Below are positions 20,724-31,462 of a stretch of DNA of 64,000 nt, piece after piece. The notes beneath the pieces are model-generated. The model did no database searches. It saw nothing but the letters and a program-made list of their open reading frames with translations, and was not told where the DNA came from. Both the position numbers and the translations under genes were made by a program. This DNA comes from Micromonospora sp. NBC_01740 (lineage in GTDB: Bacteria > Actinomycetota > Actinomycetes > Mycobacteriales > Micromonosporaceae): NCBI RefSeq assembly GCF_035920365.1, contig NZ_CP109150.1:4836001-4900000 (forward strand), written 5' to 3'. The first letter of the stretch is position 1; every line of letters begins with the position of its first letter.

Positions 20724-22742
20724 ATGACTGTGAATCCGATCGACCTGGAAGTCGTCACCGAAAGTCTCATCTCGATCGTCCGCGAGATGCGACAGACGAT
20801 CTTCCGTACCGCGCACTCGCCGGTGATCGCCGACGCCCAGGACTTCTCCTGCGCACTCTTCGACCCCTCGGGGCAGATGGTCGCCCAGGGCCGGGACATG
20901 CCGGGACACGTCATCGCCATGCCCGCCTCGGTGGCCGAGATCTTCGCCGACTTCGCCGCCGAGATGCGCCCCGGAGACCTCTATATCGTCAACGACCCGT
21001 ACCGGGGCGGCAGCCACCTCAACGACGTCACCCTGATCAGCCCGGTCTTCGTCGACGGGGAGCTGTTCCTCTTCCCCTGCGTCCGGATGCACTGGGCCGA
21101 CATCGGCGGCATGACCCCCGGCAGCGTCTCCGGCCAGGCCACCGAGATCCTCCAGGAGGGGCTGCGGATCCCGCCGATCAAGCTGATCGAGGCGGGCCGT
21201 CCCAACCGGGCCGCCTTCGACATCCTCTTCGCCAACGTCCGGATGGCCGAGGAACGCCGCGGCGACCTCGAATCCAGCATCGCCGCGTGCCACACCGCGC
21301 AGCGCCGGTTGAAGGAACTCGTCGACCGCTGGGGCACCGGGCTGATCCTCGACTGCGTCGCGGCCAACATGGACCGCACCGAGCAGCGGCTGCGCGACAT
21401 GATCCGGTCGCTGCCCGACGGCACCTACCGCTACGAGGACTACCTCGACCTCTACACCGACGGCGACTACGACGCCGCGATCGTCCGCTGCCGGCTGACC
21501 GTCGACGGCGACGAGATCGAAGCCGACTTCCGGGGCTCCTCCACCCAGGTCGCCGCCGTGGTCAACTCGTCGCGGGCGATGACCGTGGCCGGGGTGTTCA
21601 TCGCCGTCAAGTCCGCCCTCGATCCCGGCGGGCTGGTCAACCACGGCGCGTTCCGGCCCCTGCGGGTCCTCACCGAGCCCGGCACGGTCGTGCACGTCAG
21701 CTACCCCGCCCCGGCCAACGCCCACAGCGAGGTCCGCAAGCGGGTCATCTCCGCGGTGATGGCCGCGTTGAGCCAGGTGGCGCCCGACCTCATCGCCGCC
21801 GACCAGTTCGGCACCACCTTCCAGAACCTCATCGGCGGAGTGGACGAGCACACCGGCCAGCCCTACCTCTACTACGACTACCCGGCCGGCGGCAACGGCG
21901 GATTCCTCGAATCCGACGGTCCCAGCGCGATGAACCCGGTCGACCTCGGCGACATCTCCACCATCCAGTCCGTCGAGCGACTGGAGACCGAGATCCCGAT
22001 CCTGGTCGAGGCCTGCGAGCTGCGCGCCGGCTCCTGCGGAGACGGTACGCACCGGGGCGGCCTGGGCAGCCGGCGGGAGACCCGGCTGCTGGCCAGCGGC
22101 GGGTCGTACTCGGTGCAGACCGACCGCACCACCGTCCCCCCGTACGGGCTGCGCCACGGCGGCCCGGGCGCCCCGACGGTCACCCACCTGCGTCGCGCCG
22201 ACGGCCGACGGGTCGACTTCGACACCCCCGGCAAGATCGCCGGCTTCCCCATGCGGGCCGGGGACGTACTGGTCATGGAGTCCGCCGGCGGGGGCGGCTG
22301 GGGCGACCCGCTGGACCGCGCGCCCGACGCCGTCGCGGAGGACGTCCGGCAGGACTATCTGACCGGCGAGGAGGCCCGCCAGCGCTACGGCGTCGTCCTC
22401 GACGGCGACGGCGAGGCCGACCGCGCCGCCACCGCCGACCTGCGGCAGCGGCTGCGCGACGAGCGGAGCTGGTTGCGCCTCACCACCACCGACCGGCCCG
22501 CCTACACCGGCCGGCGCGGCCAGCGCCGGCTGGCCTACGTCGCGCCCGGCAGCGGCCTGGCCGAGGAGAGCCTCGTCGAACTGCACGGCGTGCACCCGGC
22601 ACCACTGCGGGCCTGGCTGCGCCACGACACCGCGCTCGCCGCCGACGAGATAGCCCTCGACGACGACGGGATGCAGATCCTCGGCGGCACCGCCGAGCAC
22701 CGCGCGTACGTGCGCGTCCTCACCGGGGAGGGGCGGTCATGA
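20724..22742 (+). CDS. hyuB: Hydantoinase B/5-oxoprolinase-type subunit
   Basis: A 672-residue HyuB/AcxB/ApcD-type subunit, first gene of the microcompartment operon. Family blocks are clear: FRTAHSPVIADAQDFSCALF near 27-46, GDLYIVNDPYRGGSHLND near 82-99, FPCVRMHWADIGGMTPGS near 114-131, and YDYPAGGNGGFLESDG near 388-403. HyuB normally ends soon after GGGGWGDPLDRAP (near 528); here about 130 more residues follow, the last 70 of which look unrelated to the usual family end. It needs HyuA for ATP-dependent hydrolysis or carboxylation, and HyuA is encoded in the other operon. The presence of hyuB at the head of an aromatic BMC operon suggests that the initial substrate is cyclic. Confidence 0.9.
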   Translation: MTVNPIDLEVVTESLISIVREMRQTIFRTAHSPVIADAQDFSCALFDPSGQMVAQGRDMPGHVIAMPASVAEIFADFAAEMRPGDLYIVNDPYRGGSHLNDVTLISPVFVDGELFLFPCVRMHWADIGGMTPGSVSGQATEILQEGLRIPPIKLIEAGRPNRAAFDILFANVRMAEERRGDLESSIAACHTAQRRLKELVDRWGTGLILDCVAANMDRTEQRLRDMIRSLPDGTYRYEDYLDLYTDGDYDAAIVRCRLTVDGDEIEADFRGSSTQVAAVVNSSRAMTVAGVFIAVKSALDPGGLVNHGAFRPLRVLTEPGTVVHVSYPAPANAHSEVRKRVISAVMAALSQVAPDLIAADQFGTTFQNLIGGVDEHTGQPYLYYDYPAGGNGGFLESDGPSAMNPVDLGDISTIQSVERLETEIPILVEACELRAGSCGDGTHRGGLGSRRETRLLASGGSYSVQTDRTTVPPYGLRHGGPGAPTVTHLRRADGRRVDFDTPGKIAGFPMRAGDVLVMESAGGGGWGDPLDRAPDAVAEDVRQDYLTGEEARQRYGVVLDGDGEADRAATADLRQRLRDERSWLRLTTTDRPAYTGRRGQRRLAYVAPGSGLAEESLVELHGVHPAPLRAWLRHDTALAADEIALDDDGMQILGGTAEHRAYVRVLTGEGRS

Positions 22743-23722
22743 GCAGGGTCTTCCGGGTGCCGGTGGCGACCACCAGGCCCCGCACGGGTGGCGGCGCCGG
22801 CAACGCCCCGGCCCCGCAGGCCGCCCCGGCCCGCGCCGGCATCGTCGCCGGCTGCCTCAGCCCACATCCGCCCCACCTGATCTACGCGGAGAACCCGCCG
22901 CAGAACGAGCCCCGCTCCACCGGCGGCTGGGAGACGCTGCGCTGGGCCTACGAGCGGCTGCGCAAGCGCATCCAGGAGGTGCACCGCCCCGACGTGCTGA
23001 TCGTGCACGCCCCGCACTGGATCACGATGGTCGGCCACCACGTCAACTGCGCGCCCAACCCGCGCGGCATCTCCGTGGAGCCGATCTTCCCGCACCTCTT
23101 CCGGTACCGCTACGACTTCCGCACCGACGTCGAACTCGGCGAGGCCATCGTCGAGGAGGCCAGCGGCCTCGGCCTCGTCACCCGCGCGATGCGCGACCCC
23201 CGGGTACGCGTCGACTACGCCACCATCGGCGCCCTGCACCTGGCCAACCCCGCCTGGGACATCCCCGTGGTGTCCCTGTCGGCGAACAACAACCCGTACT
23301 TCTACTCCGACGCGGCGCTGGAGGAGATGGAGGTGCTCGGCGAGGCCACCCGCCGCGCCGTCGAGGCCACCGGCCGCCGGGCCGTGCTGCTCGCCTCCAA
23401 CTCCCTGTCGCACCTGCACTGGCACGAGGAGCCGGCGCTGCCGGAGGACATGGAACGCGAACACCCGTACAACAACCACCAGTACCGGTGGGACATGAAA
23501 CTGCTCGAAGCGATCCGCCGGGGACCGACCGCCCCGCTGCGGGAACTCATCACCGAACACATCGAGGCGACCGCGTCGGAGACGAAGGCCGGCAGCCTCA
23601 CCTGGCTGCTCGCCGCGATGGGCTGGCCCAAGGTCGCCGGTGACGTGCTCGGCTACGGCACGATCATCGGCACCGGAAACGCCGTCGTCGAGTGGCTGCC
23701 CGAGGGGAGCCCCCATGGCTGA
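22739..23722 (+). CDS. amnB: 2-aminophenol 1,6-dioxygenase beta (catalytic) subunit with N-terminal extension
   Basis: A 327-residue class III (LigB-type) extradiol dioxygenase that opens the ring of 2-aminophenol to 2-aminomuconic 6-semialdehyde. Likely Fe(II) ligands are His43 (SPHPPHLIY), His93 (HAPHWITMVGHH) and Glu281 (TASETKAG); they keep the spacing of His13, His62 and Glu251 described for Pseudomonas AmnB. Further histidines at 225-229 (SHLHWHEE) fit the active-site base. All are shifted by about 30 because of an extra N-terminus: a short basic/hydrophobic segment (SRVFRVPVATTRPRT) and a Gly/Ala/Pro linker. Such a peptide-plus-linker is a candidate shell-targeting signal. Overlaps hyuB by 4 nt and amnA by 8 nt. 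Confidence 0.9.
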   Translation: MSRVFRVPVATTRPRTGGGAGNAPAPQAAPARAGIVAGCLSPHPPHLIYAENPPQNEPRSTGGWETLRWAYERLRKRIQEVHRPDVLIVHAPHWITMVGHHVNCAPNPRGISVEPIFPHLFRYRYDFRTDVELGEAIVEEASGLGLVTRAMRDPRVRVDYATIGALHLANPAWDIPVVSLSANNNPYFYSDAALEEMEVLGEATRRAVEATGRRAVLLASNSLSHLHWHEEPALPEDMEREHPYNNHQYRWDMKLLEAIRRGPTAPLRELITEHIEATASETKAGSLTWLLAAMGWPKVAGDVLGYGTIIGTGNAVVEWLPEGSPHG

Positions 23723-30998: not shown

Positions 30999-31462
30999 CC
31001 ACGAACCAGGACACGACCACGAACCAGGACACGGCAGCAGGTCACGGCACGGGCGCACAGGCGCACGTCGTGGCCGGCAAGGCCGTACCCCGAGGCGCGT
31101 TCCCGCACGTCAAGGTCGCCGGCGGGTTCGTCTTCGTCTCCGGCACCTCCAGCCGCCGCCCCGACAACACCTTCGCCGGCGTGCAGGTCGACGAGCTGGG
31201 CACCACCAACCTGGACATCCGCGCGCAGACCCGCGCCGTCATCGACAACATCGCCGACCTGCTTAAGACGGTCGGCGCCGACCTGAGCGACCTCGTGCAG
31301 GTCACCACCTACCTCGTCAACATGAACGACTTCGGCGGCTACAACCAGGTCTGGGCCGAGTACTTCGACGCCACCGGCCCCACCCGCACCACCGTCGCCG
31401 TCCACCAGCTACCCCACCCGCACCTGCTCATCGAGATTCAGGCCGTGGCCGTACTGCCCTGA
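30995..31462 (+). CDS. amnD: 2-aminomuconate deaminase (RidA/YjgF family)
   Basis: A 155-residue RidA-fold protein. VVAGKAVPRGAFPHVKVAGG followed by FVFVSGTSSRRPDNTFAGV (near 25-65) is distinctive for 2-aminomuconate deaminases such as AmnD/NbzD, which release ammonia to give 4-oxalocrotonate. Relatives begin near VVAGKA; here about 20 extra N-terminal residues are low in complexity (Thr, Asn, Gln, Asp) and encoded by an exact 18-bp tandem repeat (30997-31032). Last gene of the operon. No clear terminator follows before the convergent DUF2075 gene. Confidence 0.9.
   Translation: MTTNQDTTTNQDTAAGHGTGAQAHVVAGKAVPRGAFPHVKVAGGFVFVSGTSSRRPDNTFAGVQVDELGTTNLDIRAQTRAVIDNIADLLKTVGADLSDLVQVTTYLVNMNDFGGYNQVWAEYFDATGPTRTTVAVHQLPHPHLLIEIQAVAVLP
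30997..31032 (+). repeat. Exact 18-bp tandem repeat at the 5' end of the deaminase gene
   Basis: GACCACGAACCAGGACAC occurs at 30997-31014 and 31015-31032 with no mismatch. It encodes the duplicated TTNQDT in the N-terminal extension of the deaminase and could change length by slippage without shifting the frame. Confidence 0.85.

What the first reader, a model, noticed from the sequence alone, without database searches (positions are those of the whole stretch)
20724..31462. Complete 2-aminophenol meta-cleavage pathway encoded together with microcompartment shell genes
Eight pathway enzymes (amnB, A, C, F, H, G, E, D) and three BMC shell genes occur in one rightward operon. Gene order B-A-(shell)-C-F-H-G-E-D resembles the known Pseudomonas amn cluster with shell genes inserted after the dioxygenase. 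The match to the ARO (aromatics) BMC type known from Actinobacteria is established at family level; operation as an aromatic-degrading organelle here is inference. The shell would trap 2-aminomuconic semialdehyde and acetaldehyde.
Basis: partly seen in the sequence, partly recalled or inferred. Interest (0 to 1): 0.92.

Follow-up and report, generated by a model that had tools for sequence, protein, structure and literature searches.

The report
Aromatic-degrading microcompartment locus with feeder operon
This bacterial DNA carries a known kind of protein-shelled organelle for breaking down 2-aminophenol; what is new is DNA evidence that a neighbouring set of uptake and ring-opening genes is controlled together with it, pointing to how its still unknown food may be made.

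Summary
At 20724-31462 of a Micromonospora genome one rightward operon encodes HyuB, the eight 2-aminophenol meta-cleavage proteins (B-A-shell-C-F-H-G-E-D) and two BMC-H plus one BMC-P, the only PF00936/PF03319 matches in the genome. It is an ARO microcompartment of the 2-aminophenol subtype, described in 2021 and 2023 (PMC8217296, PMC10470539): a new member of a known kind. The shell is inferred.

Added here: (1) A second operon (9683-19723: importer, HyuA, CoA ligase, fumarase-superfamily lyase, crotonase, ThDP enzyme) shares a promoter box, GACCAYNWTATGRKCC, with the HyuB promoter. In 160 genus genomes all 24 exact matches lie at these two promoters, in 14 of 18 ARO-bearing genomes; the window's own sites differ by one base each. 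(2) HyuAB, already suggested in print as a possible upper-pathway decarboxylase, looks closer to ATP-dependent cyclic-amide hydrolases; I propose it releases 2-aminophenol from an imported precursor. (3) Other lineages swap this module: HyuAB in 14 of 33 ARO loci, a split PEP-synthase-like enzyme in 16, never both within the stretches held. (4) ARO AmnB starts with a short M-x-x-[VI]F leader (31 of 31 readable), not seen in 47 non-ARO relatives.

The parts
8570..9508 (-). MaoC-like hydratase, divergent from the feeder operon; homologue near the importer gene in 16 of 18 ARO-bearing Micromonospora stretches; membership uncertain
   Evidence: PF01575 89.1 bits
9599..9662 (+). Feeder-operon promoter as I read it by eye: TTGACT (9599-9604), TAGCGT (9623-9628), then the box at 9647-9662 (AACCATAATATGAGCC, one base from the genus box)
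   Evidence: region alignable in 18 of 18 stretches
9683..10645 (+). ABC importer substrate-binding protein, NMT1/SsuA-like
   Evidence: PF13379 66.8 and PF09084 56.7 bits (scanned from 9695); below the SsuA_fam cut-off
10642..11526 (+). ABC importer ATPase
   Evidence: PF00005 111.4 bits
11523..12350 (+). ABC importer permease
   Evidence: PF00528 91.8 bits
12401..14410 (+). HyuA, ATP-binding-type subunit of a hydantoinase/oxoprolinase-family enzyme
   Evidence: PF01968 304 bits; best PDB N-methylhydantoinase 7hk5 463 bits, 6yra_A 343
14414..15991 (+). AMP-forming acyl-CoA ligase
   Evidence: PF00501 251.7 bits
15991..17349 (+). Fumarase-superfamily lyase (PcaB / trans-aconitate decarboxylase / adenylosuccinate-lyase-like)
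   Evidence: PF00206 and PF10397
17346..18107 (+). Crotonase (enoyl-CoA hydratase family)
   Evidence: PF00378 124.6 bits
18104..19723 (+). ThDP-dependent enzyme; best solved relatives are named BbmA
   Evidence: PF02776, PF00205, PF02775; 8xod/8x3x
19732..20556 (-). IclR-family regulator, presumed repressor of both operons
   Evidence: PF01614, PF09339
20558..20620 (+). HyuB-operon promoter as I read it by eye: TTGCTT (20558-20563), TAGGTT (20582-20587), box 1 (20589-20598), box 2 palindrome GGACCACATGATGGTCC (20604-20620)
   Evidence: box 2 in other species matches the feeder box
20724..22742 (+). HyuB, metal-binding-type subunit; D40, H98, D101, H123 align with caprolactamase metal ligands
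   Evidence: PF02538 554.5 bits; alignment; ligands from PMC8453981 passages
22739..23722 (+). AmnB, catalytic subunit of ARO 2-aminophenol 1,6-dioxygenase, with N-terminal leader MSRVF and variable linker
   Evidence: 7txy_B 674 bits; leader
23715..24554 (+). AmnA, dioxygenase alpha subunit
   Evidence: PF02900 47 bits
24590..24880 (+). BMC-H shell protein 1
   Evidence: PF00936 64 bits
24904..25242 (+). BMC-H shell protein 2
   Evidence: PF00936 71.4 bits
25229..25492 (+). BMC-P shell protein
   Evidence: PF03319 57.9 bits
25513..27024 (+). AmnC, 2-amino/2-hydroxymuconic semialdehyde dehydrogenase
   Evidence: TIGR03216 806.5 bits against cut-off 693.25
27200..27994 (+). AmnF, 2-keto-4-pentenoate hydratase-like
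   Evidence: PRK11342 297.9 bits against cut-off 350
28074..29102 (+). AmnH, acylating acetaldehyde dehydrogenase
   Evidence: TIGR03215 459.3 bits against cut-off 282.25
29099..30169 (+). AmnG, 4-hydroxy-2-oxovalerate aldolase
   Evidence: TIGR03217 539.9 bits against cut-off 286
30225..30998 (+). AmnE, 4-oxalocrotonate decarboxylase-like
   Evidence: TIGR03218 211.1 bits against cut-off 350.55; no Pfam hit
30995..31462 (+). AmnD, 2-aminomuconate deaminase (Rid fold)
   Evidence: PF01042; 6izh 189.7 bits

Best explanation
This is an ARO bacterial microcompartment locus of the 2-aminophenol subtype in Micromonospora, organised as two operons that are probably co-regulated. SHOWN by sequence: a complete lower pathway (AmnB to AmnD), a three-protein shell, an IclR regulator, HyuB as first gene of the shell operon, HyuA in the neighbouring operon with an ABC importer, CoA ligase, lyase, crotonase and ThDP enzyme; and a conserved box at both promoters that has no exact match elsewhere in the 160 genus genomes searched. 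INFERRED: the importer brings in a compound holding a preformed 2-aminophenol unit. HyuAB, one subunit from each operon, opens a cyclic amide or carbamate with ATP; the CoA ligase, lyase, crotonase and ThDP enzyme handle the rest of the molecule; 2-aminophenol is released. AmnAB, perhaps docked to the shell through a short N-terminal M-x-x-[VI]F leader, cleaves the ring inside the shell; AmnC oxidises the unstable 2-aminomuconic semialdehyde before it cyclises to picolinate; AmnD, E, F, G, H finish to pyruvate and acetyl-CoA. IclR bound at the boxes keeps both operons off until the upstream compound or a derivative arrives.
For: Identity. Published chemistry for the orthologous AmnAB and AmnC of M. 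rosaria (PMC10470539, parts 1-5 of 8 read). Regulon: 18 of 160 genus genomes have AmnB, and all 18 keep importer-HyuA-ligase-lyase-crotonase-ThDP, IclR, HyuB-AmnB-AmnA-BMC-H in order (the stretches end there). Box GACCAYNWTATGRKCC: 24 exact matches in 160 genomes, all at these two promoters, in 14 of the 18 (10 carry both, 4 one), 0 in the other 142; the reversed control pattern gave 3. The pattern came from these promoters, so only its absence elsewhere is informative. Direct similarity of the two promoter regions beats simulated sequences in 14 of 14 species outside the window's own clade (p 0 to 0.047, 300 simulations each, regions chosen after the box was seen, species related). HyuAB class. 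No aromatic hydroxylase, nitroreductase or mutase among the gene calls from 8570 to 31462 (the rest of the genome was not searched for them). HyuB relatives at 62-63% share contigs with ARO AmnB in four cases judged by equal contig length and source, and L034 carries HyuA-ligase-lyase-crotonase-IclR-HyuB-AmnB-AmnA. The authors of PMC10470539 also name HyuAB as the only upper-pathway candidate.
Against: In the window's own clade (window, L104-L106) the two promoters are not significantly similar by themselves (p 0.19 to 0.42), and GACCAYAWNATGRKCC with one mismatch occurs 11 times in this genome against 9 for the reversed control. IclR binding is untested. HyuAB is far below the caprolactamase model cut-offs (468.7 and 297.2 of 1000), and the same fold includes carboxylases, so lactam hydrolysis is a class-level guess. 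19 of 33 ARO loci have no HyuAB hit within the stretch held (up to 10 kb a side), so HyuAB is not part of the ARO core. In three other ARO loci the HyuB-like protein has Gln in place of the H98 ligand. M. rosaria does not grow on 2-aminophenol (PMC10470539).
Confidence: 0.7

Rival explanations
1. Ordinary ARO locus whose upstream genes are merely conserved neighbours: HyuA, ligase, lyase, crotonase, ThDP enzyme and importer serve another pathway and travel with ARO by shared descent or transfer.
For: PMC10470539 says HyuAB's role is not clear and found no other upper-pathway enzymes in the locus; 19 of 33 ARO loci lack HyuAB in the stretch held; the window clade's two promoters alone are not significantly alike.
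Against: HyuA and HyuB are two halves of one enzyme class split across the two operons; the order is kept in 18 of 18 genus loci and partly in L034 at 42-63% identity; both promoters carry a box with no exact match elsewhere in 160 genomes.
Confidence: 0.2
2. HyuAB is the upper-pathway enzyme but works as a decarboxylase (or carboxylase), removing a carboxyl group from an aromatic acid to give 2-aminophenol or catechol: the authors' own suggestion in PMC10470539.
For: Fold shared with acetophenone and acetone carboxylases; text of PMC10470539.
Against: Both subunits score higher to N-methylhydantoinase and caprolactamase than to the carboxylases (HyuA 463 and 343 bits against 263 and 243; HyuB 250 and 248 against 104 and 81).
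Confidence: 0.15
3. The physiological ring-cleavage substrate is catechol or a substituted aminophenol, not 2-aminophenol.
For: PMC10470539 reports that the M. rosaria enzyme also cleaves catechol, with five-fold higher affinity, and describes a catechol subtype.
Against: AmnD is present (6izh 189.7 bits) and PF01361 has no match in the genome; the paper reports faster turnover on 2-aminophenol (277 against 38 per second).
Confidence: 0.12
4. Shell genes are expressed but no closed organelle forms; shell proteins act as a scaffold or are silent.
For: ARO shells themselves are not shown in the parts of PMC10470539 that I read; AmnC has no known encapsulation peptide (same paper).
Against: All three shell proteins are 85% or more identical in 8 of 10 Micromonospora/Verrucosispora loci (78% or more in all 10) and their genes lie between the dioxygenase and dehydrogenase genes.
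Confidence: 0.12
5. The feeder substrate is specifically a plant benzoxazolinone or benzoxazinone (BOA or HBOA type): HyuAB opens the cyclic carbamate or lactam, giving 2-aminophenol.
For: These are natural cyclic derivatives of 2-aminophenol (recalled); other bacteria open the methoxy analogue MBOA hydrolytically, giving 2-amino-5-methoxyphenol (BxdA, PMC11297187 passages); importer and enzyme classes fit.
Against: BxdA is annotated as a lactonase and is not a HyuAB-type enzyme; BOA alone would not need the CoA ligase, lyase, crotonase and ThDP enzyme; no sequence evidence is specific for this substrate.
Confidence: 0.15

Closest known systems
ARO microcompartment of Micromonospora rosaria (PMC10470539; type defined in PMC8217296)
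   Same: Same shell composition, AmnAB with N-terminal extension, AmnC, complete lower pathway in one operon, IclR, HyuB in the operon and HyuA upstream; the M. rosaria locus L010 has HyuA to AmnD at 65-94% identity. The paper already names HyuAB as a possible upper-pathway enzyme.
   Different: No difference in kind. Added here: two-promoter box, identity of the importer and four further feeder enzymes, two-part leader motif, mutually exclusive feeder modules in other lineages.
amn/2-aminophenol pathway of non-ARO bacteria (Pseudomonas, Comamonas; cytosolic)
   Same: Same reactions; AmnB 388 bits to 3vsg_B.
   Different: In 47 non-ARO AmnB loci no hit to the window's shell proteins or HyuAB and no M-x-x-[VI]F leader seen.
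Caprolactamase CapAB (PMC8453981, passages) and N-methylhydantoinase 7hk5
   Same: Subunit classes and the Asp-His-Asp-His metal ligands of CapB.
   Different: Well below the caprolactamase equivalog cut-offs; subunits in separate operons; substrate unknown.
BxdA lactonase for maize benzoxazinoids (PMC11297187, passages only)
   Same: Releases an aminophenol from a cyclic precursor, as proposed for HyuAB.
   Different: [quoted passage not shown] I ran no search for BxdA relatives; no gene annotated here is a lactonase.

Membership tests
ARO BMC | Shell of two distinct BMC-H and one BMC-P, no BMC-T | tested here: met
ARO BMC | LigB-type dioxygenase pair next to shell genes, beta subunit with N-terminal extension | tested here: met
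ARO BMC | AldDh of the aminomuconic/hydroxymuconic semialdehyde dehydrogenase family | tested here: met
   TIGR03216 806.5 bits against 693.25
ARO BMC | IclR-type regulator beside the locus | tested here: met
ARO BMC | Host in Actinobacteria | tested here: met
   best named relatives of AmnB and HyuB are Micromonospora
ARO BMC | Enzymes enclosed in a closed shell | not testable with these tools
   needs microscopy or proteomics
ARO 2-aminophenol subtype | 2-aminomuconate deaminase present, 2-hydroxymuconate tautomerase absent | tested here: met
   (only PF01361 searched)
Caprolactamase (CapAB) | NCBIfam equivalog cut-offs for both subunits | tested here: not met
   468.7 and 297.2 bits against 1000
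ATP-dependent hydantoinase/oxoprolinase-type hydrolases | HyuA and HyuB domains and the Asp-His-Asp-His metal tetrad | tested here: met
ATP-dependent hydantoinase/oxoprolinase-type hydrolases | ATP-dependent hydrolysis of a cyclic amide | not testable with these tools
   needs enzyme assay

The most novel reading that the evidence does not exclude
The ARO organelle is the lower half of a modular system. Its ring-cleavage core is fed in different lineages by interchangeable upper modules (HyuAB-type enzymes of at least two and perhaps three divergent subfamilies, or a split PEP-synthase-like dikinase usually with a HAD phosphatase), and in Micromonospora an IclR-controlled two-promoter regulon imports and opens a cyclic-amide natural product such as a benzoxazolinone to supply 2-aminophenol.
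Probability: 0.25. Interest if true: 0.7.

Novelty: new member of a known kind. Interest (0 to 1): 0.4.

Why it matters
ARO is called by its authors the most unusual microcompartment identified to date, and its true substrate is unknown because the model strain does not grow on 2-aminophenol; they found no upper-pathway enzymes in the locus apart from HyuAB (PMC10470539). A promoter box that ties an importer, HyuA and four further enzymes to the organelle turns that question into a short list of inducers and enzyme assays. The short AmnB leader gives a defined peptide to test for cargo targeting in a BMC without canonical encapsulation peptides.

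Tried and rejected
Looked for an encapsulation-like motif common to AmnB and AmnC, D, A, E or H: none is shared across lineages. AmnC has a WSP-type N-terminus in several Micromonospora loci and L026 only; the AmnH and AmnD tails vary (by eye).

Expected the palindrome GACCAYAWNATGRKCC to be unique in the genome with one mismatch: it is not (11 against 9 in the reversed control), so I narrowed the claim to exact matches of GACCAYNWTATGRKCC across the genus. The 10-mer CAYAATATRA (in its CATAATATRA form exact twice in this genome) is not specific to ARO: counted by hand, 32 matches lie at the two promoters (18 of 18 at HyuB, 14 of 18 at the importer gene), 5 elsewhere in the 18 ARO-bearing genomes and 47 in the 142 others, while the reversed control has 9 in all 160. 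It also matches different boxes at the two promoters, so I do not use it as the shared operator.

Tried to learn the substrate from the ThDP enzyme's best solved relative (BbmA): no paper found. Literature searches on 2-aminophenol precursors gave only general leads. Considered that the window's AmnE (60-65% to 8 other Micromonospora loci, while AmnG is 82-87%, AmnH 81-85% and AmnD 72-80%) signals another pathway: its best model is still the 4-oxalocrotonate decarboxylase one, so I treat it as replacement of one gene.

Its main text has no occurrence of promoter, operator, palindrom-, benzoxaz-, phosphoenolpyruvate, dikinase, thiamine, lyase or transporter. I read parts 1-5 of 8; the supplements (Fig. 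S2, S3) were not available, and the only other ARO paper listed was PMC8217296. I claim no priority. The odds of the best explanation and of the novel case were not changed by this check; the overall interest was lowered slightly (0.42 to 0.40) and a rival was added.

Full report
What is there. The window lies in one contig of a 7.32-Mb genome whose nearest named relatives by AmnB and HyuB are Micromonospora. Gene calls at 20724-31462 give HyuB, AmnB, AmnA, two BMC-H, BMC-P, AmnC, AmnF, AmnH, AmnG, AmnE and AmnD on the + strand, with family matches. The three shell genes are the only PF00936 and PF03319 matches in the genome. AmnB matches the solved ARO enzyme of M. rosaria over its full length (7txy_B, 674 bits; accession and organism in PMC10470539). 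The residues aligned with His13, His62 and Glu251 of 3vsg_B (iron ligands, recalled) are H43, H93 and E281, invariant in 21 aligned AmnB. AmnC exceeds the cut-off of the hydroxymuconic semialdehyde dehydrogenase model; AmnD is by far closest to solved 2-aminomuconate deaminase; no PF01361 tautomerase match occurs in the genome. So this is a 2-aminophenol-type ARO locus.

What was known. PMC8217296 (passages) defined ARO. PMC10470539 (parts 1-5 of 8) characterised it in M. rosaria, showed AmnAB and AmnC activity, noted HyuA upstream and HyuB within the operon, suggested that HyuAB might decarboxylate an aromatic molecule to 2-aminophenol or catechol, noted that Micromonosporales and some Streptosporangiales share the region upstream of the IclR gene, said that no other upper-pathway enzymes could be identified in the locus, and left the precursor unknown.

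A second operon goes with it. Upstream, 9683-19723 encodes an NMT1/SsuA-like ABC importer, HyuA, an AMP-forming CoA ligase, a fumarase-superfamily lyase, a crotonase and a ThDP enzyme, mostly overlapping head to tail, converging on the IclR gene. AmnB occurs in 18 of 160 genomes of the genus (E 1e-60 or better). I took about 19 kb around it from the 17 others: all 18 keep the order importer-HyuA-ligase-lyase-crotonase-ThDP, IclR, HyuB-AmnB-AmnA-BMC-H (the stretches end there). Alignment of the two intergenic regions shows a sigma-70-like -35/-10 pair (my reading) followed by conserved boxes: GACCAYNWTATGAGCC before the importer gene (with one base changed in the window clade), and CAYAATATAA plus a GGACCAC...GGTCC-type palindrome before HyuB (its right half reads GAGCC in two of the 18), while other stretches vary. 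The box GACCAYNWTATGRKCC has 24 exact matches in 160 genomes, all at these two promoters, in 14 of the 18 ARO-bearing genomes; 10 have both, 4 have one; the reversed control has 3 matches. The window and its three nearest relatives (G031, G103, G120) have none that is exact: the window has AACCATAATATGAGCC and GACCACATGATGGTCC. Direct comparison of the two promoters gave p 0.19-0.42 in that clade and p 0-0.047 in the other 14 species; the regions were chosen after the box was seen and the species are related. I read this as one IclR regulon of two promoters, shown by sequence only.

What the feeder might do. HyuA and HyuB are closest among solved proteins to N-methylhydantoinase (463 and 250 bits) and caprolactamase (343 and 248); acetophenone (263 and 104) and acetone carboxylases (243 and 81) score lower. 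[quoted passage not shown] PMC8453981 passages). The caprolactamase equivalog cut-offs are not met. No aromatic hydroxylase, nitroreductase or mutase was called between 8570 and 31462, so the aminophenol unit is probably preformed and released by hydrolysis or lyase chemistry, unless such an enzyme lies elsewhere in the genome. A benzoxazolinone-type compound is one candidate (inference; BxdA in PMC11297187 is a functional analogue). The CoA ligase, lyase, crotonase and ThDP enzyme remain unexplained and argue for a larger precursor.

Feeder modules are exchanged. Of 539 AmnB relatives in the species-genome collection the tool kept the best 80. 33 (L004-L036) are ARO-type by sequence and neighbours; 32 show BMC-H hits, and L034 ends before the shell genes. 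47 (L037-L083) are other AmnB loci with no hit to the window's shell proteins or HyuAB. HyuA plus HyuB occur in 14 of the 33: 11 like the window's, and 3 (L029, L031, L033) from divergent subfamilies, 29-32% identical in HyuB and 38-40% in HyuA to the window's, with Gln in place of the H98 ligand. Those of L031 and L033 are 83% and 76% identical to each other and lie in the ARO operon; that of L029 may be only a neighbour. A split dikinase stands in 16 of the 33 (the PF00391-type subunit in 16, the PF01326-type in 15), downstream of the shell genes in 15 and upstream of AmnB in L013, with a HAD phosphatase in 14 and a second Rid-like gene in 11 of the 16 (domains scanned in L016 only, the rest by clustering). 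No locus has both modules in the stretch held. The three with neither are L018 and L021 (contig ends) and L024 (a flavin monooxygenase and a metallo-beta-lactamase-fold protein, by clustering with L029).

Leader peptide. All 31 ARO AmnB with a readable 5' end (of 33; L022 and L025 are cut) start M/V-[SAG, or NSAS in L034]-x-[VI]-F followed by a variable linker to the catalytic core; I saw none in the 47 non-ARO proteins (by eye; start codons assumed). In the 21-row alignment 20 rows have it; P0079 starts late. PMC10470539 reported a 30-35 residue ARO-specific extension and suggested encapsulation; the two-part structure is my refinement. The other core enzymes examined share no such motif across lineages.

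Verdict. The locus is a new member of a known kind. Its value is that it makes the precursor question more directly testable.

Noticed in passing
L014-L017, L019, L020, L023, L036 (seven Actinomycetospora and a Pseudonocardiaceae MAG): ARO shell and dioxygenase loci whose genomes gave no AmnC-like dehydrogenase above 51% identity (8 of 12 genomes tested; completeness unknown), although PMC10470539 says ARO AldDh co-occurs in all ARO loci; these eight loci carry the split PEP-synthase-like dikinase.
   Followed up: partly
L016:12691-16727 and similar genes in 15 further loci: Split dikinase (PF01326 + PF00391), HAD phosphatase and Rid-like gene beside ARO shell genes; function in the ARO pathway unknown.
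   Followed up: partly
L034: Contig from a MAG labelled Betaproteobacteria with HyuA-ligase-lyase-crotonase-IclR-HyuB-AmnB-AmnA and the ARO leader; contig ends before shell genes and no PF00936 in the MAG. Possibly misbinned.
   Followed up: partly
window 30225-30998: AmnE is only 60-65% identical to AmnE of 8 other Micromonospora ARO loci while AmnG is 82-87% and AmnH 81-85%; L004 is 94%. Suggests replacement of one gene inside the operon.
   Followed up: no
window 28074-29102: AmnH has a repetitive D/G-rich C-terminal tail shared, among the loci, only with L004.
   Followed up: no
window 20621-20690: GGTGGTCCAC-like repeats between the HyuB promoter boxes and the start codon; the length of this stretch differs between species.
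   Followed up: no
Microtetraspora genome G566 (L031), contigs C15 and C18: Four PF00936 matches on two contigs in a genome with an ARO locus, suggesting a second BMC locus; PMC10470539 notes that several ARO species encode more than one BMC type.
   Followed up: no
public records of ARO AmnB (P0002-P0005, P0007, P0009 and others): NCBI names several ARO AmnB proteins 'tRNA U-34 5-methylaminomethyl-2-thiouridine biosynthesis protein', an evident misannotation.
   Followed up: no
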